The notes beneath the pieces were generated by a model. That model saw only the letters and a program-made list of their open reading frames with translations, did not search any database and was not told where the DNA came from. DNA of 44,543 nucleotides, from assembly GCA_016873845.1 (NCBI GenBank), contig VGVX01000015.1, positions 1 to 44,543 on the forward strand, in the 5' to 3' direction. This document shows, piece by piece, positions 8,388-23,218 of the stretch. The stretch's first letter is position 1; each line of letters begins with the position of its first letter. This DNA comes from Ignavibacteria bacterium (lineage in GTDB: Bacteria; Bacteroidota; Ignavibacteria; Ch128b). The position numbers were made by a program, and so were the translations under genes.

Positions 8388-8978
8388 TTGCACAAAATTC
8401 AAGTTGAGATATCGGCATTATCTGCGACACCGACTTCCGGTGGCGCATATGCTTTGATTTTAAAAGAAGTCAATGGAACGAGACGATTGCCTATCATAAT
8501 AGGTGCATTTGAAGCACAGGCAATTGCACTCGAATTGGAAGGGATAAAACCGCCGCGGCCTCTAACGCACGATTTAACCAAAACGATTATTGAATCACTC
8601 GGCGGTCAATTGATTGAAATCGTTATTGATGAACTTCGGGATAACACTTTCTTTGCAAAAATGATCTTTGAGCTTTCCACATTAAGCCAGGAAATTGATG
8701 CAAGACCAAGTGATGCAATTGCAATGTCAGTAAGATTCAGATGCCCAATTTTCGCTAATGAAAAAGTACTCGAAGAAGCAGCATTCATACCAAATGCGGA
8801 TGACGATGAAGTAACACACGGACTTCCGATCGAAAAGAAATCTCCTCCGAAGAAAATTACTCGTGAAAACAAAATCGTCCAGCTACAGACTCAGCTTCGA
8901 GAAGCACTTGATAAGGAAGAATATGAAAGGGCTGCAAAGATTCGAGATGAATTAAAAAGACTATCTGGTGAAAACTAA
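8388..8978 (+). CDS. Bifunctional nuclease (BFN/DUF151) domain protein with a C-terminal UVR motif
   Basis: The protein has 196 residues. The start is TTG 8388, since no ATG lies nearby and TAGGATAAG sits just upstream, across the etfA stop. Residues 1-135 form a DUF151 domain (LPIIIGAFEAQAIALELEG, RPLTHDL, DARPSDAIAMSVRFRCPIF). The last 35 residues (QTQLREALDKEEYERAAKIRDELKRL) form a UvrB/UvrC-type UVR coiled-coil motif after a lysine-rich linker. DUF151 proteins have been linked to nuclease activity in plants and in some bacteria, but the bacterial role is unclear. The combination with UVR is common in Bacteroidota and Chlorobi relatives. It is the third gene of the etf operon, with no evident functional link. 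Confidence 0.88.
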   Translation: MHKIQVEISALSATPTSGGAYALILKEVNGTRRLPIIIGAFEAQAIALELEGIKPPRPLTHDLTKTIIESLGGQLIEIVIDELRDNTFFAKMIFELSTLSQEIDARPSDAIAMSVRFRCPIFANEKVLEEAAFIPNADDDEVTHGLPIEKKSPPKKITRENKIVQLQTQLREALDKEEYERAAKIRDELKRLSGEN

Positions 8979-8988
8979 GGGAAACTCC

Positions 8989-9005
8989 GAAAGATTCCAT
9001 CTTTC
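8989..9005. repeat. Palindromic copy of the GATTCCATCT repeat
   Basis: GAAAGAT-TCC-ATCTTTC is a perfect 7-bp-arm palindrome lying between two convergent genes. Its core GATTCCATCT (8993-9002) recurs in inverted pairs at 21246-21291 and 22103-22149. It may also serve as a weak transcription end for the etf operon; an A-run/T-run pair follows at about 9021-9041. Confidence 0.6.
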
Positions 9006-9040
9006 AAAATTTAATCAACGTAAAAAAAGATAGATTTTTT

Positions 9041-10549
9041 TTAAGATCCAACAGGGATTTGATTTATTTTTTCCGGATTCCCGATTCCACATTCATTGCA
9101 GCGTTTCTTACTGCAATATTCACGAAACAGTTCGATCAATCCTTGATAAAAAACACTTTGTTTCCATATATCTGGCAATGATAGAGCATTCGCTACATCA
9201 ACAGTTACTCTATTGTCAGTCCTCTGCATCATTGTTTTGTAAACTGAGATAACCTTCAAAGAATTTTTTTGTCTCCCAAAAACGTCCGATAATACTTTAA
9301 TGAATGGCAGCACAACATTGATGACAATCTCTTCAGCGCGTGAACTACCAATAAAATATTGAAATGGAGTTTTTGCACGTTTATCAAAGTGATAATGATT
9401 CCGCCAAAAACCGCTTGCCTTAACAATCACGAGAGAGCGGAGTTCGCGAGTCATTTGCGATGAAATTTCAATCTGCTCAAAAGCCGACATGATGCGTCCA
9501 AGAAGATTATTATGAAGAATTTCATATATGATCCTGACACCTCCAGCCATTCGAATCGTAGGAAAATTTTGCGGTTTCAATTGGAAGAAGTGCCATTTTG
9601 AATTATCCATTATTTCGCCGCTGTAGTATTTCTTGACTGTGTCCCAGTAGCCATTCATTGAGCGAATATAGTTTTTAGATTCATCGAATTTTACATCATT
9701 AATATTTGGCTTCAATCCGGATATCGATAGATATAGAAATTCTGCATTTTTAACGAAACTATCCTTTGTTGTATTCTTTTGAAGAAAATCGATATCAATT
9801 TCTTGTGCAATTTTCCTAAAGCTGTCTTTATTTTTAGAATAGCCAAGTGCTTCAAATGTTAGCTCATAAAATAATTGCTGCCAAATTTTTTCATTTTGAT
9901 ATTCTGACCGACTAACATCATTATTATAAAAATCTTCATTCGGAGAGTAATTAATGCTCGGTTCACGCATTCGGTTCCGAAGCATCTCTTCATAATGAAT
10001 TTCTTTGAGTCTGTCAAGTATTCTGCTGCACTTCTTTTCAAATCGCCTTAATCCAAGATCGCGTATAAAATGAATCTTTTGATCTTGCGTTGCAGATGAC
10101 TTGGCAGACATACATGCTATTCCCTTAACTCGATGATCGCGTGCAGAAGAAATAGCATCACGGATTGAAGTGCGGATATCAGTTGCAAGAAAAGAAGAAA
10201 GCATTAAGCATTGTACATTTCTGCCAGCGGCTGTACGAGGGATATAATCACGGATATCCTTTATAAAAAAAACATGAAGCACCACTTTATTGTATTTCGC
10301 ATTTGCATTGTGTCCATGATTGATCCAATCACTTATTGACGGATCGATCTCAACATCACCGACATATTTTATTCCGCCGACTTCAATTCGTGCATTTTTA
10401 AAATCAGGCCCCTCTTCCCCATCGACCTGAACACCAGGATCGATAATATTAATTTGAGCCCCATGGGTTGTAAAAAGCTTATCAGAATAATTTCGATTTT
10501 TCCAAATTTCGTATAAGAATTTTTCTTTTATGTTTTTAAGATTTTTCAA
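9041..10549 (-). CDS. DUF2851 family protein
   Basis: The protein has 502 residues. The N-terminus (FLYEIWKNRNY, GVQVDGEEGPDFKNARIEVGG, GDVEIDPSISDWINHGHNANAKYNKVVLHV) and the cysteine-containing C-terminus (YCSKKRCNECGIG) are the hallmarks of DUF2851, a Bacteroidota/Chlorobi family of unknown function. The acidic and histidine residues in the N-terminal block hint at a nuclease-like fold, but that is inference. It starts at TTG 10549, and the TTGA overlaps the TGA stop of pyrF, which implies translational coupling. It is somewhat longer than the roughly 420-430 residues I remember for the family, with extra sequence in the middle. Confidence 0.85.
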   Translation of the reverse strand: MKNLKNIKEKFLYEIWKNRNYSDKLFTTHGAQINIIDPGVQVDGEEGPDFKNARIEVGGIKYVGDVEIDPSISDWINHGHNANAKYNKVVLHVFFIKDIRDYIPRTAAGRNVQCLMLSSFLATDIRTSIRDAISSARDHRVKGIACMSAKSSATQDQKIHFIRDLGLRRFEKKCSRILDRLKEIHYEEMLRNRMREPSINYSPNEDFYNNDVSRSEYQNEKIWQQLFYELTFEALGYSKNKDSFRKIAQEIDIDFLQKNTTKDSFVKNAEFLYLSISGLKPNINDVKFDESKNYIRSMNGYWDTVKKYYSGEIMDNSKWHFFQLKPQNFPTIRMAGGVRIIYEILHNNLLGRIMSAFEQIEISSQMTRELRSLVIVKASGFWRNHYHFDKRAKTPFQYFIGSSRAEEIVINVVLPFIKVLSDVFGRQKNSLKVISVYKTMMQRTDNRVTVDVANALSLPDIWKQSVFYQGLIELFREYCSKKRCNECGIGNPEKINQIPVGS

Positions 10550-11349
10550 TCGTAATAGATATTATCAATTAACTGTTTCAGCTTACGTGCATTCTCATTA
10601 ATAGTTTTGGACATATTGTCGGCTATACCTGAATATAAAATCCCGCGGCTTGAATTAATCAGGAATGACTCCAATTTATTTTTTTTCAAATGTTTCAAAA
10701 CAAATTCTAAATCTCCACCTTGAGCACCAATTCCAGGAATCAGAATTTTTATTTTTTTGATCGACTGGTCTAAATTATGGAACTCCGCTTTCTGCGTAGC
10801 ACCAAATACGATACCTAGATTTTGATGGATCAAATTCCATGATTTGACTTTTTTCAAAATATGATTGGAGAGAATTTTCCCATTTTCAAGTTTAAGTTTT
10901 TGAAAATCACCAGCGCCACGATTTGAAGTTAATGCCAGAACATAATTTGTTTTACCTTTATAAGAAAAAAATGGCAGCATGGAATCATAACCAAGCAGCG
11001 GATTTAATGTAACTGAGTCAAATCCAAAATGCTCAAAGATCGATTTTGCATAATACTTGGATGTTGAATCAATATCTCCACGTTTTGCGTCTCCAATTTT
11101 TTCAATTTGATTTGGACACTTTTTTAATGTACTCTCTAAAATCTTATAGCCTGCTGAACCTAATGCCTCAAAAAAAGCTAAATTAAACTTATAAGCACCG
11201 GCAAAGTCACTTGTCGAATTAATTACTAATTCAACAAAATATTGCAGCGGTTTCTTTTTCTTTTTAATTGAATTTGGGATTAGTTCGGGTAAAATATCGA
11301 TGCCTACACAAAGGTGCGATTTATTTTTCAATTTAGAATCTGACACCAA
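10546..11349 (-). CDS. pyrF: Orotidine 5'-phosphate decarboxylase, subfamily 2
   Basis: The enzyme decarboxylates OMP to UMP, the last step of pyrimidine synthesis. Its 267 residues fit the longer type 2 (mycobacterial-like) subfamily. The motifs are LCVGIDILPELIP at the N-terminus, the catalytic KIGDAKRGDIDST loop carrying the Lys-Asp-Lys-Asp set, TLNPLLGYDSM, LTSNRGAGDFQ, and IPGIGAQGGD near the phosphate site. The start is non-ATG: TTG 11349 or GTG 11346. An ATG slightly upstream is out of frame. The TGA stop overlaps the TTG start of the DUF2851 gene. No other pyr gene is adjacent. Confidence 0.93.
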   Translation of the reverse strand: MVSDSKLKNKSHLCVGIDILPELIPNSIKKKKKPLQYFVELVINSTSDFAGAYKFNLAFFEALGSAGYKILESTLKKCPNQIEKIGDAKRGDIDSTSKYYAKSIFEHFGFDSVTLNPLLGYDSMLPFFSYKGKTNYVLALTSNRGAGDFQKLKLENGKILSNHILKKVKSWNLIHQNLGIVFGATQKAEFHNLDQSIKKIKILIPGIGAQGGDLEFVLKHLKKNKLESFLINSSRGILYSGIADNMSKTINENARKLKQLIDNIYYD

Positions 11350-11480
11350 TTTTACTCATCTCTTTGCCAAATATAGAAAAACATTGGCTAACACGGAATC
11401 TGTCTCATGCAATTGCTTTATTTTCAGCAGATTGTTTCTCGAATATTTAATGCAGTCGATTGATTCGTGGTTCTGTCCGA

Positions 11481-12506
11481 TTAAAACCTCACACCCAATG
11501 TGAAATAATGTACATTTTTCAAGCGTCCAAAATCTTGATATGCATAATCTACCTTTAACGATATTAGGCCGTACATTCTATAATCGACGCCGGCACCAAG
11601 AGTGAAACCTTGTTCTGTATCCTTTTCAAATAAAGATTTATAACCTGCACGCAGAAATATCATTTCGTTCCACGAATATTCAAGCCCCGTATTTAAATAT
11701 TCTGTATTGTCATTCGGATGAATAGCGTTTATTTCGCTTGTCAATCGTGATGATGCTGTCTTGACAACATCTACGGCAATTCCAACTCTGAATAGCAAGG
11801 GAAGATCGAATGCATCTAATTGATGCTCAGTGTTAATTACATTTCCCCCACCTGGTCCGGCAGTAGTCAATTTCAATATATCTCGCCCTTGCAATTTCAT
11901 TTTAGTCCCAAAGTTTGAAATACTTGCACCGAGTCGAGTTTCATTTAAAAACAGAATTCGATAAAGAGTTCCGATGTCGACGGCAAATCCGATTGCAGAT
12001 TCGTTCCAAATGTATTCACGGATATATTTAGCATTGAAACCGATTGAAAAATCATCTGTTAAACTTCGTGCATATGAGAGTCCAATTGTCATCGCACCTG
12101 CAGAAAATAATTCCCCTGTTCCTTCTGGCTTTTCGATTGTTCGTACGAGCATATCACCCATAGAGAGAACTGAAACAAAAGCGCCAATCGTTCCTATATC
12201 ACCGACCTGCATTCCAAATGCGGCATGATCAAATTTTACATCAAGCAGCCAGTCAACATGGTTGAAAATCACTTCTCTCGAATTCACATACGCTAAGCCG
12301 CCAGGATTCCAGTAAATCGAGGTAACGTCAGTTGCAGATGCAGTAAAGGCACCTCCCATACCAAGTGCACGCGAACCAACACCAATTTTTAAGAACTGTG
12401 CTGATGTAGTGCCGGTTTTTGTTAAGCTTGTACCGATTTGTGAGTAGACGGAATTACTGAAAAAAATAATAAGACCTGAGATGACGATTATAAAATTCTT
12501 TTTCAT
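11481..12506 (-). CDS. PorV/PorQ-like outer-membrane barrel protein
   Basis: From ATG 12506 the protein has 341 residues; AAAGGAGT lies about 6 nt upstream, so the in-frame ATG at 12551 is rejected. A signal peptide ends near VYSQ. The mature part begins with the UPF0164/PorV-like block FLKIGVGSRALGMGGAFTASATDVTSIYWNPGG (quoted here as its key positions GVGSRALGMGGAF and YWNPGG), and the rest is a repeated amphipathic beta pattern ending in the aromatic YFTLGVRF. PorV is the type IX secretion shuttle protein that collects cargo at the outer membrane; this paralogue could serve a dedicated cargo. It is the last gene of the operon after the secreted 1191-residue protein and the TonB-dependent receptor. 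Confidence 0.85.
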   Translation of the reverse strand: MKKNFIIVISGLIIFFSNSVYSQIGTSLTKTGTTSAQFLKIGVGSRALGMGGAFTASATDVTSIYWNPGGLAYVNSREVIFNHVDWLLDVKFDHAAFGMQVGDIGTIGAFVSVLSMGDMLVRTIEKPEGTGELFSAGAMTIGLSYARSLTDDFSIGFNAKYIREYIWNESAIGFAVDIGTLYRILFLNETRLGASISNFGTKMKLQGRDILKLTTAGPGGGNVINTEHQLDAFDLPLLFRVGIAVDVVKTASSRLTSEINAIHPNDNTEYLNTGLEYSWNEMIFLRAGYKSLFEKDTEQGFTLGAGVDYRMYGLISLKVDYAYQDFGRLKNVHYFTLGVRF

Positions 12507-12560
12507 AAAAAACTCCTTTGATGAAGATGATGAATTTACTGATCGCTTCATTTTTCATTC

Positions 12561-15500
12561 TCACTTAATAATTGCAAACTTTATTAATTTCTCACCAATG
12601 CCGGGCGCATCGATATGAGCGAGATAAATTCCATACGAAACGCTAAATCCATCGCGGTTGAGTAGATTCCAGAACTCTCTGCCATGTGCAAGTGAAGAAT
12701 AATGATTTATAGTTTGAACTAATTCACCTGTAAGGGTAAAAATTCTGATAGTACATTCCGGTGGTAAGTTTTCGAAATAAATTCTTCGTTCTCCTCTGTT
12801 TTGACCCGGAAGTTTCACTGAAGGTTCTAAGTCGTTAATCGCAACATACGGATTCGGTACAACGTAGATGTTATCCAATCTTCCTTTCGCTAGAGATGCA
12901 TCGAAACTGGACGCCGTTGATCTAAAATTAAACTGGTCTGATGATAAAAACGGACGTTGTGTTGAGACAAACAATACATCCCCATCGGTCGGATCAATAG
13001 GAGTAACAGCTGGATTCGTTGGCTTTGTAATGATTATCCCCCATGTAGTAGTATCTGTAGTTAATCCTCTAGAACCTGCTTTGAAAATAATTATCTCTTC
13101 ACCCGGATTCCAAACTGAATCTCGTGAAAAAGCATTTTCCTTAAGAAATGTTAAAGCAGGCTGCGGCACTCCAGTAGTAACTTCACGAACTGAATATTTA
13201 ACTGGGAATTTTATCAGTCGTCCGCCAATAAGAATCATAGCCGAATCGATATTAGATTTGCTGAACCGAATTTCGTAGTCTGCACGGCTTGGAATAATTT
13301 TACCGCCAATTGTTGCCTTCGCTATATTAAATGTGTAGTTGGTTTTTCCTTCAATCCATTTTGATTTGATTGTATCTATTTTTAGAGCATCATAATCTTT
13401 CACTTTTAATTTAATACCCTCAAAAACATCGTTATCATCTTCACCCCTTAAAGTCCTGCTCTGATAGATGGGATAATAACGATATTGAAGCGAATATTTT
13501 TTAGTTACCGGCATTGAGCTGATGTTTGTTCTTCTTATTAAGCCTCTTGAGTAATCAATCACATAATCTAAATTTTCTGTATAAATTGTACCGGCATCGT
13601 CTTTGAGCTGGATTAAGCTGTCTTTACTCAAATTCCCGGCTTTCAATTTCGAAAAGTTAGTATCGTAAAACGCTATTCCAGTTTCCAATTCCGGTTGTAA
13701 GCGAAGGACAGAATAATTTTTCCCTAATACCGGTTTCTTATTTACGATAAAACTATCCGCAAATGTAATGCGATAATCAATCTTATCTTTTACAGCAAGG
13801 TCGTCCATGATTTGAATTAAAATTTCTCCATTACCAATTCCTTTCTCATGAACAAGATCTTTTGTAGAAGAGTTACTCGAAATATAACCGCTTGCCCTTG
13901 GACCTGGAATAACCTGAACCGTATTTACATCGAATGTTAAAGTCGATGTAACTGGATCGATTGTAATTTTTTTGGTAGTCTCAGTCGGTGGAATTCCAAG
14001 TGAGTCGCCATGATCGTAAGCAACAACCGCATAGTAATAAGTTTGTCCATTGATAACATTATTAGAATCAACATAAGAATGCACAAGACCACGATTGTTT
14101 CCAAGGAAATAATGAACACCTCTTCCCTGATATTCAACTGGATGATATCCTTTCCAATAGTCAGGTGCGGCAGCATCCCAAATTCCATTTCCATTCATAT
14201 CTACATAAGGTTCGCCGATATCGTATTTCGTATTTCCGTTCAAATCAGAGAATGGTTCAGGACGAATCGCCACATCCCATTTTGCTTCCACGCCACTAAC
14301 ATCTCTTAATGGCTGGTAAAGAAATTTTGAACCCTTGCCGTCGGTAATAGTTTGAATATCATTAAAAGTTGGATCTGTGCTTCTATAAATTACGTAACCT
14401 TCAAAATCGCGTCCTGTTATTGGGTCAATACTTTCTTCAGCTTTTGTATCCCAGAACAGAGTAACTTTTTTATCTCCCGGAACTTCGCTTATAGTTGGTT
14501 TTGTTGGGGGTCTGAAGAATCGATAATTCGCATTGTAAATTCTTTGCACAGTTTCCGCTGAAATTAAGAGATCATCTAAATTTTCGCCAAGCGATAATGC
14601 CATTGAAAATCGTTTTATCTCTTTCTGTGCCAAGGCAATCGGACCGGAACCGAAAATAAAAACAATATCTTCGAGTTGTTGAATATCACCGAAATTTCCA
14701 GCTTGAATCCTAAACCACATTGATTCGTCGTTTGAAACTTTATCCGTATTCCATGTCCACGAATTAAAACTTGTGAGTCCAATCTGATCAGACTCATCCA
14801 AATCGGTTAATTCGAAATTTGGTTCACCTGGATATAAAGGATCAAGAGCTCCATCTGCGAGTCTCTTTCCTGCAGTTGGGACACCATCTCCCTCGCCAAG
14901 ATCACCTGTGTTTGGAATTCCATCTATTCCGATATCATCTGTCACTGGATTCCAATCTCTATCATTGTCAATTCCATCATCTTGAGTTTCGTCGGTCATT
15001 CCGTCGCCATCGTCATCAATGCCGTTTTCCGGATTGCTTGGGCTTTCAAGATATTTAGCTCCTAAATATCCAACCGGAAGACCGAGGTGCCCTTTTCCAT
15101 CCTCGTCCCAAAAGTAGACCATGCTTCGAGCATAAACTGGTACATCATAGTTAAAAGGTGAAACGAAAAATCCAAGATCATCTCTTACTTCAGTTCCAGG
15201 ATCGACGGGTAAACCACCGCCAACATCAGGATCGCCGTACATTCCAAAATATATTGAGTCAAGATTCTTTTCACTAACATTAGTGATCGTATAGACGAAG
15301 AAAATCGTATTTTCTGCTAAAGCATTGCTCCATTGTAAAGCTCTGCCATCGACTTGCACACCAAGACCTCGCCTCGATGAATCGGATGGAAAGGGCCAGT
15401 ATGGAAATTCAGCGTTATCTCTATCGTCCATCGCCCAAAAAACTTCTAAATCGGCATTAGTTGCATCCTGTGCTAAATATCCAGGCCAAACATATTTTCC

Positions 15501-16136
15501 AAGTGTAGGATTGTACCACTCTCTTGGCCAGCTGTCGGGCTTTCCATCACCGTCTTTATCTTCCGCTGGATTGGACGCCATTAATCCTTGTGAAGGGTCT
15601 GCAAATCCCTTCAGCGGCTGCCAGCCCCAAAGAGTATCACCTGTTGGATTGACTTCCCTTAAATTAGGATAATCCCACAAACCATCTGAAATAATGTGCA
15701 ACTTGTGTGTACTATCTAATCCACTTGGAACAGACGCCGCAATAAAAGGACAAAATTGAAATGCATAAGAGACTCCTCTCCATACGAGATTATTAACATT
15801 TCGAAGAAGTCCGTAACCCGGTGCAATTCCACCATAATTATATATTTCCGTGCTGATCTTATTACCATTCATGAAATAATTTTTACGGTCAGCGTGGGCA
15901 AGCGTTTTTGCGAATTTATTTTTTAGATTTGAGAGTGAAGCTATCTTCTCAAGATTATCATTTAGTTGTGAGGAATATTTTATCGAAGTATTTACCCTTT
16001 GAAGTAAATTCTTTATTGATTGATGCTCTTGTGTTCGTTTATCTTTGTCGGAAGAAGTCTGAGCAAAACCAGAAATTAAACTGCCCAATAATAAATTGAT
16101 GAGAATAAAAGAACGTAGGAAATTATTTTTTTTCAT
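12561..16136 (-). CDS. Large secreted protein with fibronectin-III-like region and type IX sorting tail
   Basis: The 1191-residue product starts at ATG 16136, with GGAG 9 nt upstream; the TTG at 16142 is only about 3 nt from that site. A signal peptide ends at GFAQ. Residues about 195-205 (DKDGDGKPD) and 372-420 are Asp/Gly-rich, with calcium-binding thrombospondin-type-3-like spacing (NGIDDDGDGMTDE, DDGIDNDRD). A fibronectin-III-like region begins near 546 (KPTISEVPGDKKVTLFWD) and runs to about 720. The C-terminus has a VVPNPY motif and ends GIYLAHIDAPGIGEKLIKFAIIK-like (last residues KFAIIK), a type IX sorting-type domain. Its function is unknown. Its position between a TonB-dependent receptor and a PorV-like barrel suggests surface export. 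Confidence 0.85.
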   Translation of the reverse strand: MKKNNFLRSFILINLLLGSLISGFAQTSSDKDKRTQEHQSIKNLLQRVNTSIKYSSQLNDNLEKIASLSNLKNKFAKTLAHADRKNYFMNGNKISTEIYNYGGIAPGYGLLRNVNNLVWRGVSYAFQFCPFIAASVPSGLDSTHKLHIISDGLWDYPNLREVNPTGDTLWGWQPLKGFADPSQGLMASNPAEDKDGDGKPDSWPREWYNPTLGKYVWPGYLAQDATNADLEVFWAMDDRDNAEFPYWPFPSDSSRRGLGVQVDGRALQWSNALAENTIFFVYTITNVSEKNLDSIYFGMYGDPDVGGGLPVDPGTEVRDDLGFFVSPFNYDVPVYARSMVYFWDEDGKGHLGLPVGYLGAKYLESPSNPENGIDDDGDGMTDETQDDGIDNDRDWNPVTDDIGIDGIPNTGDLGEGDGVPTAGKRLADGALDPLYPGEPNFELTDLDESDQIGLTSFNSWTWNTDKVSNDESMWFRIQAGNFGDIQQLEDIVFIFGSGPIALAQKEIKRFSMALSLGENLDDLLISAETVQRIYNANYRFFRPPTKPTISEVPGDKKVTLFWDTKAEESIDPITGRDFEGYVIYRSTDPTFNDIQTITDGKGSKFLYQPLRDVSGVEAKWDVAIRPEPFSDLNGNTKYDIGEPYVDMNGNGIWDAAAPDYWKGYHPVEYQGRGVHYFLGNNRGLVHSYVDSNNVINGQTYYYAVVAYDHGDSLGIPPTETTKKITIDPVTSTLTFDVNTVQVIPGPRASGYISSNSSTKDLVHEKGIGNGEILIQIMDDLAVKDKIDYRITFADSFIVNKKPVLGKNYSVLRLQPELETGIAFYDTNFSKLKAGNLSKDSLIQLKDDAGTIYTENLDYVIDYSRGLIRRTNISSMPVTKKYSLQYRYYPIYQSRTLRGEDDNDVFEGIKLKVKDYDALKIDTIKSKWIEGKTNYTFNIAKATIGGKIIPSRADYEIRFSKSNIDSAMILIGGRLIKFPVKYSVREVTTGVPQPALTFLKENAFSRDSVWNPGEEIIIFKAGSRGLTTDTTTWGIIITKPTNPAVTPIDPTDGDVLFVSTQRPFLSSDQFNFRSTASSFDASLAKGRLDNIYVVPNPYVAINDLEPSVKLPGQNRGERRIYFENLPPECTIRIFTLTGELVQTINHYSSLAHGREFWNLLNRDGFSVSYGIYLAHIDAPGIGEKLIKFAIIK

Positions 16137-16153
16137 TTTCAATACTCCGACGA

Positions 16154-18925
16154 TTAAAATCCAATTGTAACACCAAGCCGAACTTCTCTTGGCGGTAAAT
16201 AATAATGAGGTCGATTAAAATATTCCTCAGCAGTGTGAACTACCGGAATCCGTTTTGCAAGTTCATCAACCGACTTAGTCGCACCGCTTGTTTGAAGCAG
16301 AGTATATGTAGCTCTTCCTGTATCGTCGTAAACTAATCGCTCAATCAATGAGTCGAATAGGTTAAAAACTTTCATGAATACAACAAATTTAAATCCGAAC
16401 AAATTGAATACTTTTTCGGCGAAGAGATTGAAAACCATTTGCGATGGCCTTCGCCCGCTGTTTGTACGAACGTAAACCTGCTGTCCTGTAATCTGCGGTG
16501 TATATGGAAGTCCAGTTCCAATTCTCCCGACAAGCGTAACATTCCAATTATTTAATTCGCCGAATGTTACTGTTGTATTTAGAGTATGAGTTTGATCCCA
16601 GGAAAGATAAACGGGGAGTTTTTCACTTTGCCTTCCAGAGGATAAATCGAGGAAGAAAGCATCAGAATTTGTATCGTTCCCCTCTCCAGATTGAAAAGTA
16701 TAATCTACGGTTACACCGAGAGGACTATCGATTGATCTTCTTTTAGTTAACGAAAAGGTAATTCCTTTGATATTGCCATAATCTTTATTTACATATTTTG
16801 TGTATGTTTTATCGCCCGAGACTCGGATTGTTTGTACTGCAAGCAAATCACGAACGTCCTTGTAAAATCCAGTTACATTAAATGCGAGGTCTTCCAATAA
16901 TAACTGCTGCAATCCGAGTTCGTAAGTGACGGTTTTTTCCGGATTCAAATTTGCGTCGCCGAAAAGCGGATTGGAAGTAGCGAAGCTCGATTTGAAGCTT
17001 GCATTAGAATAAAGGTATTGGAACGGCGGCATCTGAAAGAAATGTCCGTACGAAAAATGAATTATACCTCTATCAGTAATTGGAAACGAAATTCCTAATC
17101 TCGGACTGAATTGATGTTTTGGTTTTGAATCGGCTAAGAGATTCGTCTTATCAACATATCCTGGCAAGGTTGGATCATATGGTGAAGGATAGGTAATGTT
17201 CGTTGAGTATTGCGATCTCGAATGGAAGTAATCGTATCTCAAACCAATATTAAGAATAAAATTTTCATACTCCATCTTATCCTGTATGTAAGCCGAAAAC
17301 TCAAATGGTTTCTTTGTGTACAAATCGTGATCGGCTGTAGCAGTGGAAGGAATTGTTGGGACTAAATATCTCGTTGTATCGCGCTTCACAACAAAACTTT
17401 CATAATCAAGTTGATGGAATTCCGTCTCCATACCAAATCTTAATTCATGATTTTGTGATAATTGACTTGTTAGATCGAACTTGCCTCCATAAGTTCTTGC
17501 ACGCTGATAGTTATGACCGTTTCTTGTTCCACCAAAATAGAAAGTGTACGAAGTAGGGCGCACGAGTTTTTCTTCAGGTTGATATCTATTGCTGGCTTTT
17601 AATCCATCCGTACCTTTACCGGCAAAATAATCAACTGCTTTTCCAGAAGCATCTTCAAGGGGATAAAGATACTGCTTATAATCATTGAAGTTATATGACA
17701 TTTTTATTGAATAGAAAGTGTTAGATGAAATTGCATGTCTAACATCGAGTGAAGTGATAAATCCTTTTTCATAGTAATTATAGTTTGCATCTGGATTATA
17801 CTTGAAATCATGCGAGTAAAACTTATTGTGAGAATTTGAGAAAATTGCATCATAATTAATCTTTATTGTCGGGATGGGCTTGATGGTGAGTTTCCCTGTA
17901 GCGCTAAATTCATTGCTTGGATTCATCGGAACAATTGCATAATCTCCAGTCGCAGCAATTCGAACATCATTCGGATTTGCTGGATTAATATAGACCGAAT
18001 CGGTTGTATTATGCTCTCTAACTCCATATAACCACCCTCTGTCGTAATCTAATCTGCTCGATAGAAAGAAAGACACATTGTTATTGAAAAAAGGAACCGG
18101 TCCACCAAGTGTAAATTCTGTAACATTATTGCTGAAAATATTTATGTCTTCAACATTGAAAAAAGTTTTCTTTCTTGTACTGAGATGATCCCCTGTGTAG
18201 AAAGAAATCTGACCTTTTAATTTATTCCCACCTTCTTTCGTGATCGTATTGATCACTCCGCTCAGCGCATTTCCGTACTCTGCATTGAAAGTACCGCTCA
18301 CGACTGAAATTTCCTGAACTGCGTTTGTAGCGATTTGAACCATAGGCGAATTGTCAAATGGATTTGCAATCGACACACCATTCACAGTATATGCGATCTC
18401 ATTAGAGCGCCCGCCGCGAATGTGAAGCTCGCCTCCAACACCTTGTATTATTCCAGCTTGCAAGGCAAGAATCTGATGAATGCTTTCAACTGGAAGGGTT
18501 TCAATCTGTTGAACATCTATTGTGGCTTGGGAGGAAGTTAGATCTGGTCTGATTAATGGTGCAGAGGCTTCAACAACGACAGTTTCAAGTGCAATCGCTT
18601 CTTCCGAAAGCTCAACATTAAGTTTGGTAGTAAAATCAACTGAGACTTTTACCCCATTGAATTGTTTTTTCTGATATCCGACAGCAGAGACTACAACCGA
18701 ATAGTTACCTGGAGGAATGTTATTGACAACATACCAACCGTCAAGATTAGTTGCCGCACCGAGTCCAGTGCCCGATACAACAATGTTAACACCCGGAATT
18801 GGGTCCCTCGTGTTAAAGTCAATAACTCTCCCAGCGATTTTTCCGGTTGTGCCTGCGATGAGAGTTATAGGATGCAGGAGCATAGACATTAGAAAAACCA
18901 AAAGGTATATTAACAAGCGTTTCAT
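16154..18925 (-). CDS. TonB-dependent outer-membrane receptor
   Basis: The 923-residue protein starts at ATG 18925, with AAGGGA upstream. A signal peptide is followed by a carboxypeptidase-regulatory-like domain (GKIAGRVIDFNTRDPIPGVN, GYQKKQFNGVKV) at about 27-115. Next is a plug domain at about 120-235 (IHQILALQAGIIQGVGGELHIRGGR-type, with the RGGRSNEIAYTVNGV block and EYGNALSGVINTITKEGG). The remainder is a 22-strand-type barrel ending in the aromatic terminus VRLGVTIGF. The substrate is not evident; the family carries siderophores, vitamins or oligomeric carbon sources, and some members are adhesion- or secretion-linked. It is first in a three-gene operon with the secreted 1191-residue protein (17-base gap) and the PorV-like barrel. 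It is not a SusC/SusD pair, since no SusD-like gene is present. Confidence 0.92.
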   Translation of the reverse strand: MKRLLIYLLVFLMSMLLHPITLIAGTTGKIAGRVIDFNTRDPIPGVNIVVSGTGLGAATNLDGWYVVNNIPPGNYSVVVSAVGYQKKQFNGVKVSVDFTTKLNVELSEEAIALETVVVEASAPLIRPDLTSSQATIDVQQIETLPVESIHQILALQAGIIQGVGGELHIRGGRSNEIAYTVNGVSIANPFDNSPMVQIATNAVQEISVVSGTFNAEYGNALSGVINTITKEGGNKLKGQISFYTGDHLSTRKKTFFNVEDINIFSNNVTEFTLGGPVPFFNNNVSFFLSSRLDYDRGWLYGVREHNTTDSVYINPANPNDVRIAATGDYAIVPMNPSNEFSATGKLTIKPIPTIKINYDAIFSNSHNKFYSHDFKYNPDANYNYYEKGFITSLDVRHAISSNTFYSIKMSYNFNDYKQYLYPLEDASGKAVDYFAGKGTDGLKASNRYQPEEKLVRPTSYTFYFGGTRNGHNYQRARTYGGKFDLTSQLSQNHELRFGMETEFHQLDYESFVVKRDTTRYLVPTIPSTATADHDLYTKKPFEFSAYIQDKMEYENFILNIGLRYDYFHSRSQYSTNITYPSPYDPTLPGYVDKTNLLADSKPKHQFSPRLGISFPITDRGIIHFSYGHFFQMPPFQYLYSNASFKSSFATSNPLFGDANLNPEKTVTYELGLQQLLLEDLAFNVTGFYKDVRDLLAVQTIRVSGDKTYTKYVNKDYGNIKGITFSLTKRRSIDSPLGVTVDYTFQSGEGNDTNSDAFFLDLSSGRQSEKLPVYLSWDQTHTLNTTVTFGELNNWNVTLVGRIGTGLPYTPQITGQQVYVRTNSGRRPSQMVFNLFAEKVFNLFGFKFVVFMKVFNLFDSLIERLVYDDTGRATYTLLQTSGATKSVDELAKRIPVVHTAEEYFNRPHYYLPPREVRLGVTIGF

Positions 18926-19136
18926 CTTAATTCCCTTTTACTGAATGAATTTTTTGGAGTATTGCAATGATAAAAACATTTATGATGCCAATTTTTCATT
19001 AATTCAAAATATTGATTAATAAAATTTATGTCAAGAATGCAAATCATTGTCAGTGTTTAATAAAAGCTCAACTATGAAGAGCCAGACTCATAATGACGAG
19101 ATTATTGGTTATTATTAAAATAATATTATAGAACGG

Positions 19137-19165
19137 TTGACATTACATTCATATTTTTTTAGCTT
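19137..19165 (+). promoter_or_regulatory. Possible promoter of the FG-GAP sorting-domain gene
   Basis: A perfect -35-like TTGACA (19137-19142) is followed at 17-nt spacing by a weak TAGCTT (19160-19165), leaving a short leader before the AAGGAGG ribosome site at 19188-19194. The -10 match is poor (three of six), and Bacteroidota-type promoters use a different consensus, so this is tentative. The region 18946-19195 between the divergent genes holds no other clear site. Confidence 0.3.
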
Positions 19166-19198
19166 AAAATAAACAACATAAATACTTAAGGAGGTATG

Positions 19199-21052
19199 AT
19201 GAAAAAAATACTTACACTTCTTCTTGTTCTCCTCGTTACTTCACTTAGTTATACACAAGTTCGACATTCCACAGCCTATGATTATCCGCTGCTGACTGGA
19301 TCTTCTGTAGATTCTGTTCTTAACGGTTTGAAAAGTATCCGTGGCTGTTACTTTGAAACGGATATGGATGGTGATGGAAAGTCAGAAATTGGTCTAACCA
19401 ATTATTTCGACCAAGGACACGTACATTTGTTTGAAACAGTTGGGAATGATTCAATTAAATTGGTTTGGTCTTCCCCAAAGGTTGCTAGTGCCGGTGGAGG
19501 CTCCACCCCTCGATATGTATTATTCGGTGATTTGGATAATGATGGTAAAAAGGAGATCATATTCCAGAGTTCCGGTAATGGAATTTTCATATTTGAATGG
19601 GATGGAGTAGTCGGTAGTGACAATTATGGTACGATCCCCTCACAAGTAATTAACTCGACCACATTGCCTGAAATGACAGGCGTAAGTGGAAGTACTGAGT
19701 ATATGGAAATCGACGACATTGATACCGATGGCCAGAATGAATTATGCGTATTTTACAACTCCTCTCCAAACGCTAATGATAAATTTTTCATAATAAGTGC
19801 AATTGGAGATTGGAATACCAATGATCCTGGATTTTCAGGTTTCACTGCTGAGTATTCAAAAAGCAGAGTTGATCTTATCAATTGGGGTATGAATGGAGGA
19901 ACACCCTACTCGATGCATATTGCACAATTCGACGGAGCTGGAAACAAAGAACTTTTGTTCCAAGCTTGGAATTTCAAAAATGTTTCTCCAGTTAGAATCC
20001 CAACAGCAAACACATATCTTGAAGCTGATACTACTATTGGAAAACAAAACTACTTCCTGACTGGAACCTACGATGATGTAGCGTTATTCGGTGGTGGTAC
20101 ATTTGATATTGATAAAGATGGCAGAGAGGAAGTTTACTTGCCAAATTATCACGCAACAGGAAGTCCGTATATGGGCACTGTTCACATGATAAGTTACAAT
20201 TCAGGAGAATCTACTACTATCATAGATTCAACAAATGTAACTACTTTGAACTTCAAAGACGCAGGGGTCCTTGATGATCTTTTAGTTACTTTCGGTTTTG
20301 GCTATGGCGATATAGACAAAGACGGAAAACCGAACATCTACACATCAAGCACTTATGGGAGTACTGGTTGTAATGTTTTAACTGCAGAATTCCAAGGTGG
20401 TGATAAGAGAAATTTAGCAAATTGGACATTTGCGAAATTATATAGAGGTGATCCAACTATATATACAACCCGAATCATAAAAGATTCACTTGGTAATAAG
20501 GATACCACACTTACGATAGACAACGCTTTCGCTTCGAAGATATTTGCTCGTTATACTGATTTTGATAAAGACGGTTTTGAGGATATTTTACTTCCTTATC
20601 AGGCTTTGTCAGATAGTGTGACTCATATTACGCTAACATGGAACTCTGGTACAAGCAAATTCGATTCTGTGTCTGTTAGAGCAGCGAATCCAAAACGATG
20701 GAGCTTCCGGATCATTGAAGGGACAATTTCTACTGGGGTTGAGGCAAAGGATCTAACTGTTATAACTCCTGACGACTATGAACTTTATCAGAATTATCCG
20801 AATCCATTCAATCCATCAACTGAAATTTCGTTCTTCCTGCCAATTACAGATAAAATTTCTTTAAAGATTTACAATCAGCTCGGACAGGAAGTGAAAACTC
20901 TTATTGCAGAAAAAGAGCACATTAACGGAAGGCATTCTGTAGTTTGGGATGGAATGAACAATTTTGGCGGTAAAGTTTCAAGCGGGATTTACATTGCACA
21001 ATTGAAATTCGGAAACTTCAGCAAAGAAATTAAAATGATGATGATTAAATGA
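19199..21052 (+). CDS. Secreted FG-GAP/VCBS-repeat protein with type IX sorting domain
   Basis: The protein has 617 residues from ATG 19199. AAGGAGG (19188-19194) is 4 nt away from this ATG but only 1 nt from the alternative ATG at 19196. A signal peptide ends near LSYTQ. At least six Asp-rich calcium-binding repeats follow (DMDGDGKSEI, DLDNDGKKEI, DIDTDGQNEL, DIDKDGREEV, DIDKDGKPNI, DFDKDGFEDI), typical of integrin-like beta-propeller blades. The last about 85 residues are a textbook type A sorting domain, with YPNPFNPST and a terminal MMMIK. It is probably displayed at or released from the cell surface, with an adhesive or structural role. It is transcribed away from the TonB-receptor operon and followed by a terminator at 21150. 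Confidence 0.92.
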   Translation: MKKILTLLLVLLVTSLSYTQVRHSTAYDYPLLTGSSVDSVLNGLKSIRGCYFETDMDGDGKSEIGLTNYFDQGHVHLFETVGNDSIKLVWSSPKVASAGGGSTPRYVLFGDLDNDGKKEIIFQSSGNGIFIFEWDGVVGSDNYGTIPSQVINSTTLPEMTGVSGSTEYMEIDDIDTDGQNELCVFYNSSPNANDKFFIISAIGDWNTNDPGFSGFTAEYSKSRVDLINWGMNGGTPYSMHIAQFDGAGNKELLFQAWNFKNVSPVRIPTANTYLEADTTIGKQNYFLTGTYDDVALFGGGTFDIDKDGREEVYLPNYHATGSPYMGTVHMISYNSGESTTIIDSTNVTTLNFKDAGVLDDLLVTFGFGYGDIDKDGKPNIYTSSTYGSTGCNVLTAEFQGGDKRNLANWTFAKLYRGDPTIYTTRIIKDSLGNKDTTLTIDNAFASKIFARYTDFDKDGFEDILLPYQALSDSVTHITLTWNSGTSKFDSVSVRAANPKRWSFRIIEGTISTGVEAKDLTVITPDDYELYQNYPNPFNPSTEISFFLPITDKISLKIYNQLGQEVKTLIAEKEHINGRHSVVWDGMNNFGGKVSSGIYIAQLKFGNFSKEIKMMMIK

Positions 21053-21066
21053 TGAAATCGTTGAAC

Positions 21067-21110
21067 CTGCCTTTCGGCAGACAGGTCAGAAATCCCGACC
21101 TTTCGGGATT
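21067..21110. repeat. Two adjacent GC-rich hairpins
   Basis: CTGCC-TTTC-GGCAG (21067-21080) is followed by AATCCCGA-CCTT-TCGGGATT (21091-21110), an 8-bp perfect stem. Both lie just after the FG-GAP gene's stop codon and before the terminator. They resemble dispersed palindromic units found in Bacteroidota-like genomes; neither has a T-run. Confidence 0.6.
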
Positions 21111-21149
21111 GATACTGAAGAAAGAACGAATAAATTGTTCTTCAAATAA

Positions 21150-21183
21150 AAACCCAATCTTTTAATAGATTGGGTTTTTTTAT
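21150..21183. terminator. Intrinsic terminator between convergent genes
   Basis: An 11-bp perfect stem AAACCCAATCT/AGATTGGGTTT with loop TTTAAT is followed by TTTTTATT. On the minus strand the stem is followed by TTTTTATTTG, so it can stop both the FG-GAP gene and any read-through from the TPR gene. Confidence 0.9.
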
Positions 21184-21220
21184 TAATTACTACTCAACTA
21201 CACAGGACATACAAATCAAA

Positions 21221-21296
21221 AAGATGCCATCTTAAAGATAGAAAAGATTCCATCTCCCCAGATCCTGATTTGGTTGGTAAGAGATGGAATCTTTTC
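21221..21296. repeat. Inverted-repeat element, GATTCCATCT family
   Basis: Perfect 16-bp arms GAAAAGATTCCATCTC (21241-21256) and the reverse complement (21281-21296) enclose a 24-bp loop. A smaller palindrome AAGATG-C-CATCTT (21221-21233) precedes it. The same core occurs on the other side of the adjacent TPR gene at 22061-22151 and at 8989-9005. Confidence 0.75.
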
Positions 21297-21314
21297 CGTT
21301 AAGCAAGCAAGAGT

Positions 21315-22004
21315 TTAAATTTGAAACTCTGCTGCATACTTATCATAATCGCGGGCGAATTGAGTTTCAGGAAAATCCCTCTTCATTTGATCAAGAATTT
21401 TCTTTGCTCTCTCCTTATCACCTACTAAAGAATATGTCCTTGCAGCATTAGTTAAATATTCAGGAGTAACGGCAGCATTTTTAACTACATTTGCAGCTTT
21501 CATAAAATATTCAGCAGCCATTTTTAAGTCATTTTTAATTTCATAGCAAGATGCAATTCCAGCATATGCGGCAGCTTTCATTAAGTCTATATCTCCTGAG
21601 TAACCATCATAATACTTTTTAGCTTCGTCAATATTTCCGAGACTCATATATGAATTTGCTAAATATAATTTAGCAGTCTCACCAGATTCAGTGCTGCCAT
21701 AGTCTTCCACAAGAGCTTTCAATCCTCGTATGTTTTTTCCCGGCACTCCATCGATCGCTTGTTGATAGGATGCTTGATCATATAACTTCAATACTCGTGC
21801 GAGTTCAGTGTTTGCAACTTCAGCATTTTCTTTTGACTTGTTGGCTAAGAATATTATCACGAACGCTATCAAAACAATTGCTCCAGCAGCTCCGAGAATA
21901 ACTTTTTGATAGTTCAAATAAAAATTCTTTACCTTAAAATAGTTTTCAACAAGTTTATCTTGCTTAATCTCTCTCTTACTTATTTTCTTTTTTGGAGCTA
22001 ACAT
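21315..22004 (-). CDS. Membrane-anchored TPR protein (YfgM-like)
   Basis: The 229-residue protein has a lysine-rich cytoplasmic N-terminus and one membrane segment at about 35-53 (VILGAAGAIVLIAFVIIFL). The remainder holds tetratricopeptide-like helices (ARVLKLYDQASYQQAI, AKLYLANSYMSLGNIDEAKKYYDGY, AAAYAGIASCYEIKNDLKMAAEYFMKA, NAARTYSLVGDKERAKKILDQM). Topology and size resemble YfgM-type periplasmic TPR proteins, which associate with the Sec translocon and envelope chaperones. That function is only a suggestion here. It is apparently monocistronic and flanked on both sides by inverted repeats of one family. Confidence 0.8.
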   Translation of the reverse strand: MLAPKKKISKREIKQDKLVENYFKVKNFYLNYQKVILGAAGAIVLIAFVIIFLANKSKENAEVANTELARVLKLYDQASYQQAIDGVPGKNIRGLKALVEDYGSTESGETAKLYLANSYMSLGNIDEAKKYYDGYSGDIDLMKAAAYAGIASCYEIKNDLKMAAEYFMKAANVVKNAAVTPEYLTNAARTYSLVGDKERAKKILDQMKRDFPETQFARDYDKYAAEFQI

Positions 22005-22060
22005 TTTATAACCTTTTCTTAATTAAATTTCGATTGCAAAAATAATAAAACTTTTTTAAA

Positions 22061-22151
22061 TGATTCTATCTTTTCAAAGCTTCACAGCTAAGATTCGCAC
22101 ATGATTCCATCTTTTGGCATTGTTGATAGTGATTTGAAAAGATGGAATCAT
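22061..22151. repeat. Triple-arm inverted-repeat element, GATTCCATCT family
   Basis: TGATTCTATCTTTTCAAA (22061-22078) and ATGATTCCATCTTTT (22101-22115) are direct copies. The reverse complement lies at 22134-22151, matching the inner copy perfectly over 15 bp and the outer copy at 17 of 18 bases. Two alternative hairpins are therefore possible. The element fills the gap between the TPR gene's 5' side and the 3' end of the PHP gene. Confidence 0.8.
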
Positions 22152-22159
22152 TCCAGCTT

Positions 22160-23218
22160 CTATTGACTTTGCCCAAATCTTATATGGTTCGAGAAAATCC
22201 AAGCATTCCCATCCAAGTAAACTTCGACACGATAAACACCGTGATTCACAATTTCCCAAATTCCTTCCGAACCAATAGTTGAGTCGATTATCTCACCATT
22301 TTTTACCAATTTTATTTCACCAATCACATTGGGTAAGTTTACTCGGAATCGAGTTTTTTTCAAAGACTTGGGAATATCATCTCCCATTTGAAAAATTTGG
22401 TTTCCTGCTTCAGCAAAAAATTTAAACCCGTTTGGTTCGGCATGATAAAAATTACCGATGTAGCATCTTCCTTCAATTAAAGACGAATAAACCATATTTT
22501 TATTTGCCTCAATACTTTCAGGAGAATTATCTTTATTCAATTCCTTAGGGCAGAGAATAACCGTTCTAACAGATTTGAATAAAACTTTATATGGAAAAAT
22601 TTCTACTTCGAAAAAACCTAACACGTTTTGTTTATGAGCGTGAGCATCTACCCCGCCAATTCCAACAATTTTTCTTTTCTGCGCAATCTTATCCCAAATC
22701 TTTAAAGCTTTCACATCAGGTGCTGAAACAGATTTTAGTGGATGTATAAAACGCTGGTACTTATTTTGTTCGGTCAGCCCTTCCATCCATTCTGACATGT
22801 GATTCCAGACTTCTATTCCTGTGAAGTCTTCACTATCCCACGCTGTCCAGGGATAGGGTGGATGCTTTTCCATGTGATTCCTTTTTTCGAAGGGATGCGC
22901 AACAAATCCAAATCCACCTTCATCCTTAATACGCCTAACATATTCTTGAGCTGTGATTCTATTGTCGTATGATTTTGAGATCCCGAAAGCAAGGTAATGG
23001 TTTTCATTTTTTTGATCGTTTATTTCAGTACCGATTAAAACAAGAGTATTATCGTACCAGCCTTCTAATCCATCTTTTAGAGGACGCAAAGTGTTATGGT
23101 CTGTCATCATTACGACATTTACACCGACTTCAGATGCATATCTCGCTATCTCGGGAATTTCCCCTGAACCATCGGAATATTTGGAATGGACATGAATTAC
23201 GGAACTTATTTCGTACAT
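22160..23218 (-). CDS. PHP-domain metal-dependent phosphoesterase
   Basis: The 352-residue protein has the polymerase-and-histidinol-phosphatase fold. Metal-binding motifs are in the expected order: His9-x-His11 with Asp16 (HVHSKYSDG), Asp40-His41 (MTDHNT), Glu65 (GTEI), His74 (NHYLAFG), a GFVAHPFEKR motif, and GVDAHAHK near residue 200. Members hydrolyse phosphate esters such as histidinol phosphate or nucleotides. The CehA/McbA-like layout with a C-terminal beta domain (from about 250) leaves the substrate unknown. There is no signal peptide, so it is probably cytoplasmic. It may be co-transcribed with the upstream TPR gene (21-base gap). Confidence 0.88.
   Translation of the reverse strand: MYEISSVIHVHSKYSDGSGEIPEIARYASEVGVNVVMMTDHNTLRPLKDGLEGWYDNTLVLIGTEINDQKNENHYLAFGISKSYDNRITAQEYVRRIKDEGGFGFVAHPFEKRNHMEKHPPYPWTAWDSEDFTGIEVWNHMSEWMEGLTEQNKYQRFIHPLKSVSAPDVKALKIWDKIAQKRKIVGIGGVDAHAHKQNVLGFFEVEIFPYKVLFKSVRTVILCPKELNKDNSPESIEANKNMVYSSLIEGRCYIGNFYHAEPNGFKFFAEAGNQIFQMGDDIPKSLKKTRFRVNLPNVIGEIKLVKNGEIIDSTIGSEGIWEIVNHGVYRVEVYLDGNAWIFSNHIRFGQSQ

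What the first reader, a model, noticed from the sequence alone, without database searches (positions are those of the whole stretch)
8989..22151. A GATTCCATCT inverted-repeat family occurs in three intergenic spots
The 10-mer GATTCCATCT or its complement occurs at 8993, 21246, 21282, 22103 and 22140, with a one-mismatch copy at 22062. All of these sit in intergenic palindromes or inverted pairs (arms of 7, 16 and 15 bp). A random 10-mer would be expected about 0.09 times in this window on both strands under equal base use. One further copy at 1140 is inside a coding region and looks incidental. I know of no named element with this core.
Basis: seen in the sequence. Interest (0 to 1): 0.55.

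Follow-up and report, generated by a model that had tools for sequence, protein, structure and literature searches.

The report
Genus-specific REPIN-like intergenic hairpin repeat
The repeated ten-letter word is one arm of a short hairpin repeat scattered between genes, often just after stop codons, in two genomes of one bacterial genus; it looks like a new family of a known kind (REP/REPIN-type repeats) that may also end or protect transcripts.

Summary
The real unit is not the 10-mer but a ~53-bp element: a 17-bp arm AAAAGATNNNATCTTTT (itself an imperfect palindrome), a variable loop of about 20 nt, and the arm inverted. I worked with 21 copies in the window's genome and 13 in the other genome held for the genus. 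Exact arm pairs number 18 and 26 there, and at most one in each of 147 other relatives. Arms co-vary (21 two-sided changes, 7.7 shuffled); no target-site duplication. 13 of 21 copies lie within 35 bp of a stop codon (background 26%). At nine resolved orthologous junctions none keeps the element; seven hold another hairpin of this genus. Other hairpin families of the same build bracket two RAYT-like transposase genes in the second genome. Best reading: REPIN-like dispersed repeats, RAYT mobilisation and transcript-end function inferred. Classical GTAG heads are missing and no cognate RAYT is proven. New family of a known kind; modest interest.

The parts
21242..21295 (.). long-type element: arm AAAAGATTCCATCTC, 24 nt, arm GAGATGGAATCTTTT; 19 bp from the stop codon of the convergent TPR-protein gene
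   Evidence: (RNA fold -29.8 and -30.4 kcal/mol on the two strands, z about -7); model E 3.6e-10, not independent because it is in the model's training set
21219..21235 (+). extra single arm AAAAGATGCCATCTTAA (GCC subtype) beside the element
22099..22153 (.). long-type element: arm ACATGATTCCATCTTTT, 21-nt loop, arm AAAAGATGGAATCATTC; 6 bp from the stop codon of the PHP-domain gene (22160-23218, -)
   Evidence: model E 9.0e-9, in the training set
22058..22074 (+). third arm AAATGATTCTATCTTTT; can pair with the 22137 arm instead of the 22099 arm (20-nt arms, 95%)
8989..9041 (.). degenerate long-type element (arm GAAAGATTCCATCTTTC, decayed second arm) filling the gap between two convergent genes and touching one stop codon; absent at the orthologous junction of G001
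   Evidence: model E 1.8e-8, in the training set
21315..22004 (-). TPR-repeat protein gene lying between the two better elements
22160..23218 (-). PHP-domain protein gene whose 3' end abuts the 22099 element
8388..8978 (+). bifunctional-nuclease-domain protein gene whose 3' end abuts the 8989 element
9041..10549 (-). DUF2851 protein gene, convergent, whose stop codon touches the 8989 element

Best explanation
The three spots are copies of a dispersed, non-coding, REPIN-like repeat of one bacterial genus: two inverted copies of a 17-bp imperfect palindrome around a variable loop of about 20 nt, able to form one long hairpin in RNA or single-stranded DNA. SHOWN: architecture, copy number, restriction to two genomes of the genus among those searched, arm co-variation, weak loop homology, intergenic and 3'-end placement, absence of the same element at nine resolved orthologous junctions. 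INFERRED: copies were spread through a single-stranded hairpin intermediate by a RAYT/Y1 (HUH) transposase, and copies that survive tend to sit behind stop codons, where a hairpin with A4...T4 ends can stop or protect transcripts from both sides. Selection on the hairpin would keep stems paired while loops drift.
For: Copies: the covariance model finds 52 strand-wise matches in G000 and 32 in G001 at E<=1, none better than E=0.39 in 8 other genomes (28 copies trained the model); exact arm pairs 18 and 26, one in each of 2 and none in 145 of 147 other relatives, reversed-pattern control 0; one in each of 3 and none in 391 of 394 other genomes of a phylum sample that overlaps the first. Structure: 92.9% of cells paired, 7 pairs and 21 cells changed on both sides against 4.2 and 7.7 shuffled (2 of 500 and 0 of 500); folding each arm on itself shows no co-variation. 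Loops more alike than shuffled (-0.53 vs -3.04, sd 0.18, 0 of 200; 33 of 34 loops, one near-duplicate dropped). Two G001 copies (C74, C140) differ at 1 of 55 positions but lie in different contigs. Placement: 34 of 34 copies lie outside ORFs of 80 aa or more (one is inside a 62-aa ORF); 13 of 21 (G000) and 5 of 13 (G001) within 35 bp of a stop codon, background 0.255, combined P=0.0006; 13 of 30 classifiable copies between convergent genes, background 0.103. RAYT link: the only Y1 gene found in G000 (C71; NCBIfam REP_Tyr_transpos 119.6 bits, cut-off 80) has a short-type element upstream and a long-type 215 bp downstream; in G001 hairpins of other families but the same build lie on both sides of the C93 RAYT and the C261 RAYT-like gene, and an element of this family lies near C261, C428 and C50. 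Precedent: REPINs show inverted 16-mers, variable spacer of set length and compensatory changes (PMC3116915, passages); REPs in two genomes sit <20 bp from 3' ends of convergent ORFs (PMC3733652, passage).
Against: No GTAG/GTGG or CGTC head: 2 and 0 of 68 ends, control rates 1.7% and 0.9%. The C71 RAYT has nearer repeats of another family (GTCACCGACNNNTCGGTGAC), and its G001 counterpart C154 (149 of 187 residues identical) is flanked by a related GTCATCGA repeat but not by this element, so that RAYT's cognate is probably the other repeat. The three G001 Y1 matches near this element (C261, C428, C50) all score below the Pfam cut-off, and C261 is below the NCBIfam cut-off. 8 of 17 Y1 loci of the two genomes showed no strong hairpin nearby. 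Copy number is low for a REP. No excision or insertion was observed; one junction (8989) is an empty site and its borders are not clean. Proximity P values for RAYTs assume uniform placement, ignore clustering of intergenic repeats and used 20 Y1 loci for G001 where one search lists 16. At 4 of 9 orthologous junctions an element with related arms is present in both genomes, which could mean old vertical inheritance, not recent mobility.
Confidence: 0.64

Rival explanations
1. They are ordinary bidirectional intrinsic terminators that evolve in place; the shared stem reflects old duplication or a favoured sequence, not transposition.
For: Position after stop codons and between convergent genes; A4...T4 ends; 4 of 9 resolved orthologous junctions hold an element with related outer arms, with compensated differences (G000 C46 TCC/GGA against TCT/AGA in G001). 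In Draconibacterium arms of the GCC subtype form a hairpin about 22 bp behind one orthologous gene in the three loci whose ORFs I read, apparently inherited in place.
Against: Near-identical arms at about 20 unlinked loci in the window's genome and 13 in its sister, and almost nowhere else searched; loops of ~20 nt are long for intrinsic terminators (recalled); 16 of 34 copies lie more than 35 bp from a stop codon; one empty orthologous site.
Confidence: 0.24
2. They are MITEs of a DDE transposon with terminal inverted repeats.
For: Short, non-coding, inverted ends, dispersed.
Against: No target-site duplication beyond control (mean 1.53 vs 1.54, n=34); at 53 bp they are below the 70-300 bp given for MITEs in PMC3733652 (passage). 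A larger element with these arms at its ends was not searched for systematically.
Confidence: 0.05
3. They are paired operators for a dimeric regulator (each arm a 17-bp palindromic site).
For: Each arm is an imperfect palindrome and arm starts lie 34-38 bp apart.
Against: Under-represented in divergent (promoter) gaps: 3 of 30 classifiable copies against a 0.248 background, P=0.04; arm centres co-vary with the partner arm and not within the arm; not kept at orthologous genes.
Confidence: 0.04

Closest known systems
REPINs (REP doublets forming hairpins; Bertels and Rainey 2011, PMC3116915, passages read)
   Same: Two inverted, highly conserved ~16-17-mers that overlap palindromes, a spacer conserved in length more than sequence, compensatory changes, extragenic dispersal, two alternative folds (long hairpin or two small ones).
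   Different: Smaller (arm starts 34-38 bp apart against 71 bp for the GI 16-mers), AT-rich, about 20 copies, no GTAG head, cognate RAYT not established.
TIR repeats of TIRtrons/TIRYT genes (PMC3733652, passages)
   Same: Moderately abundant families of inverted repeats related to RAYT-like genes, some self-complementary, also in genomes lacking GTAG REPs.
   Different: The GGGGWSAS motif named there occurs in 1 of 34 elements with flanks; this family was not seen as the nearest repeat on both sides of a RAYT.
Atypical secondary structures flanking TnpA-REP subclass 2.6 genes of Bacteroidetes (PMC6006769, passages)
   Same: RAYT genes in Bacteroidetes flanked by unusual structures with copies elsewhere in the genome.
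   Different: I could not compare sequences with that paper's figure; the subclass of the present RAYTs was not tested with its profiles.
Rho-independent (intrinsic) terminators
   Same: Hairpin followed by a T run, often next to stop codons, in both directions.
   Different: Sequence shared among unlinked loci; long loop.

Membership tests
REPIN / REP-like interspersed palindrome | two inverted copies of a conserved short sequence that can form one hairpin | tested here: met
REPIN / REP-like interspersed palindrome | each unit itself an imperfect palindrome with a non-complementary centre | tested here: met
   88.3% and 92.9% of cells paired within the left and right arm (but no co-variation there)
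REPIN / REP-like interspersed palindrome | spacer of set length with weak sequence conservation; compensatory changes in arms | tested here: met
   (34 loops, 17-21 nt beyond 17-bp arms)
REPIN / REP-like interspersed palindrome | many extragenic copies dispersed in the genome | tested here: met
   but about 20 copies, low beside the >100 per genome stated at the start of the abstract of PMC2817692 (listing)
REPIN / REP-like interspersed palindrome | cognate RAYT gene flanked by the repeat on both sides | tested here: inconclusive
   C71 RAYT has short and long types on its two sides, but another repeat family lies nearer
GTAG- or CGTC-tagged REP superfamilies | GTAG/GTGG or CGTC head at the hairpin foot | tested here: not met
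   2 and 0 of 68 ends, control rates 1.7% and 0.9%
MITE (DDE type) | target-site duplication | tested here: not met
Intrinsic terminator | causes transcription to end | not testable with these tools
   needs Term-seq; position and T run fit for part of the copies
Rfam families | match at or above gathering score | tested here: not met
   only a tRNA in the window

The most novel reading that the evidence does not exclude
In this genus the hairpins behind genes are an interchangeable stock: the place of a 3'-end hairpin is kept while its sequence is replaced by members of several REPIN-like families with a shared build (imperfectly palindromic 13-18-bp arms, ~20-nt loop, or the same outer arm closed by a GC-rich core). 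At 7 of 9 resolved orthologous junctions G001 holds a different hairpin of this stock where G000 holds this one. A RAYT-driven copying process would then supply and homogenise transcription-end hairpins, a domesticated role for REPIN transposition.
Probability: 0.15. Interest if true: 0.65.

Novelty: new member of a known kind. Interest (0 to 1): 0.36.

Why it matters
It adds an AT-rich, untagged REPIN-like family in a lineage whose sister genome is deposited as Bacteroidetes, and shows different hairpins at the same 3'-gene positions in two genomes of one genus. That makes it testable whether RAYT-linked repeats supply transcript-end hairpins.

Tried and rejected
Chance or composition: rejected (in a 400-kb sample of G000 only one hairpin with perfect arms of 11 bp or more, at least 3 G/C and a 14-27-nt loop occurs; that sample came from large contigs, which repeats tend to break, so it is biased against repeats, and it also served as the placement background). 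Rfam RNA family: none. Each arm folding on itself as the selected structure: no co-variation. Target-site duplications: none beyond control. Operator pairs: against placement. Hits outside the genus in the genome scan: in the three Draconibacterium loci whose ORFs I read (L067, L074, L072) they are hairpins behind one orthologous gene; a fourth (L081) I know only by its match. The Clostridia, Bacillota, Prolixibacteraceae and bin.700 hits were printed but their surroundings were not read. I did not count any of these as the same dispersed family, but their arms are very alike and D. orientale and bin.700 each hold a further pair with a one-mismatch arm, so a wider, sparse distribution is not excluded. 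Literature: searches listed no description of this repeat; one search found 19 papers holding both strings, 10 were listed, none was read and their titles concern other subjects. No control was run for how often other 3' ends in G001 hold such hairpins, so the 7 of 9 has no background rate.
Full report
OBSERVATION. The window is one contig of a 2.98-Mb assembly, G000. The 10-mer occurs 37 times genome-wide against 2 for the reversed control, but it is not itself the unit: of the 35 copies I classified, 19 are inside ORFs.

THE UNIT. A 17-mer search with up to 3 mismatches (62+54 hits, control 23+21; the list of places was cut) showed many hits in inverted pairs with starts 34-38 bp apart. Printed side by side, the unit is AAAAGATNNNATCTTTT, a loop, and the arm inverted, about 53 bp. 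The arm is itself an imperfect palindrome. Subtypes differ at the arm centre (TCC, GCC, TCT) and the partner arm changes with it. Window copies: 21242-21295, 22099-22153 and, with a decayed arm, 8989-9041; extra single arms at 21219 and 22058.

HOW MANY, WHERE ELSE. A covariance model from 28 elements (18 of G000, 10 of G001; alignment A1) gave 52 strand-wise matches in G000 and 32 in G001 at E<=1, the best elsewhere being E=0.39 in 8 further genomes; only 150 first-look candidates per genome were scored, so counts are lower bounds, and E-values of the 28 training copies are not independent. I worked with 21 long-type places in G000 and 13 in G001. Left out: short types, weaker candidates (C124, C55, C74, C54, C34, C1:141450) and the pair at C58:15834 that one search shows but one search does not list. 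One of the 21, C1:139531, is degenerate. G001 appears to be the MAG deposited as Bacteroidetes bacterium OSL_B.mb.4 (matching contig lengths). Exact arm pairs (2-30 nt between them, short types included): 18 in G000, 26 in G001, one in each of two and none in 145 other relatives, among them the 4 other genomes of the family; in a phylum sample of 395, G000 plus three genomes with one each, two of them the same as before.

STRUCTURE. In A1 the full hairpin has 92.9% of cells paired, 7 pairs and 21 cells with two-sided change (shuffles 88.7%, 4.2 and 7.7; 0, 2 and 0 of 500 reach it); sliding the arms by 1-3 columns drops pairing to 42-61%. The number of further pair types is not unusual (144 of 500). 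Cells count sequences, not events, and subtypes are inherited by many copies. Per-arm hairpins show no co-variation. The window element at 21236-21301 folds at -29.8 and -30.4 kcal/mol on its two strands, z about -7. Loops are 17-21 nt beyond 17-bp arms (34 loops) and more alike than shuffled (33 loops, 0 of 200 shuffles). Target-site duplications are no commoner than in the control.

PLACEMENT. None of 34 copies lies inside an ORF of 80 aa or more; one is in a 62-aa ORF. Stop codon within 35 bp: 13 of 21 in G000, 5 of 13 in G001 (the G001 figure alone is near background); background from random placement in intergenic DNA of 400 kb of G000 is 0.255 (combined P=0.0006). Start codon within 35 bp: 1 of 21 and 1 of 13, background 0.309. 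Convergent gaps hold 9 of 19 classifiable G000 copies and 13 of 30 in both genomes, background 0.103; divergent gaps 3 of 30, background 0.248. ORFs were called by length only.

ORTHOLOGOUS JUNCTIONS. Of 21 G000 copies, the junctions of 11 were sought in G001 (2, 9); nine were resolved, C5 and C39 were not (a first alignment, used the wrong strand for three). Window 8989: no element, 9 bp unaligned between the flanks. G000 C46 and C21:24543: short type AAAAGATTCYATCCCGACTTGTCGGGATRGAATCTTTT. C3: short type AAAGTTTCCATCCCGACTCGTCGGGATGGAAACTTT behind the left-hand gene, with a further gene between the flanks. C21:30157: a hybrid, AAAGATTCCATCCCGACT-22 nt-AGTCGGGATGGAATCTTT, beside the right-hand gene (flanks on two contigs). 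C27: another arm, AGAAATGACATATCTC with a 20-nt loop. C4: two inverted copies of that element bracketing an ATPase-like ORF (named from its P-loop, recalled), with a single AAAGATTCCATCTTT arm beside one of them. Window 21242: a short type with AGAAATGACAT arms round CCGTCAGCTGACGG, at a contig end. Window 22099: other repeats, among them a CCCGAC-core palindrome without these arms. So 0 of 9 keep the element, 7 of 9 have another hairpin of the same stock, 4 of 9 with related outer arms. I have no background rate for this.

RAYT CONTEXT. A Pfam Y1_Tnp search gave 1 match in G000 and 16 in G001, 12 of the 16 over the curated cut-off. G000 C71 encodes a REP-associated tyrosine transposase (119.6 bits; PDB relative 4er8 TnpA-REP, E=1.9e-6). 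It lies between a short-type and a long-type element of this family, but also between nearer GTCACCGAC repeats, a family with 27 listed places in G000 at up to 2 mismatches, and its G001 counterpart C154 (149 of 187 residues identical) keeps a related form of those repeats and not this element. In G001, the C93 RAYT (40.3 bits, over the cut-off) is bracketed by AAAARCCCGACTTTT hairpins with 20-22-nt loops (one touching the stop codon, one 12 bp before the start), and the C261 RAYT-like gene (below the cut-offs, apparently frame-disrupted) by GACCTTGAAGGTT hairpins with 19-23-nt loops. So hairpins of the same build are found around RAYT-like genes in this genus. Elements of the present family lie near the C261, C428 and C50 matches, all three below the Pfam cut-off. 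The rough proximity P values (0.002 for G001, 0.0001 for G000) ignore clustering of intergenic repeats. Of 17 Y1 loci of G000 and G001 scanned, 8 showed no strong hairpin within 700 bp and 4 only hairpins of other kinds; several loci are cut by contig ends.

VERDICT. The finding is real and is a new family of REPIN-like repeats, restricted to two genomes of one genus among those searched, with RAYT mobilisation and transcript-end function inferred. It lacks the GTAG head, so it is not filed as a classical REP.

Noticed in passing
window 3161-3188: TGCTGTCACCGAC-CA-GTCGGTGACAGCA palindrome, a copy of the second repeat family (27 listed places in the genome) that surrounds the genome's only RAYT gene found.
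   Followed up: partly
window 21052-21186: Behind the gene with a weak T9SS-type sorting tail: CCTGCC...GGCAGACAGG and ATCCCGACC...CGGGAT palindromes and a classical terminator-like AAAACCCAATCTTTTAATAGATTGGGTTTT, i.e. several hairpins in one gap.
   Followed up: no
L144 1230-1987 (G001 C93): RAYT gene bracketed by two ~50-bp hairpins with AAAARCCCGACTTTT arms, with a third hairpin family next to it; an ATPase-like ORF lies beside it.
   Followed up: partly
G001 C413 276-1870 (L206, L210): An ATPase-like ORF bracketed by two inverted AGAAATGACATATCT hairpins, at a junction that in G000 holds only the present element: looks like a cargo-carrying unit.
   Followed up: partly
L067 2377-2421, L072 4355-4399, L074 4817-4861: In Draconibacterium the arms AAAGATGCCATCTTT with a 15-nt loop form a hairpin about 22 bp behind the same gene in these three loci; arms constant, loops varying.
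   Followed up: partly
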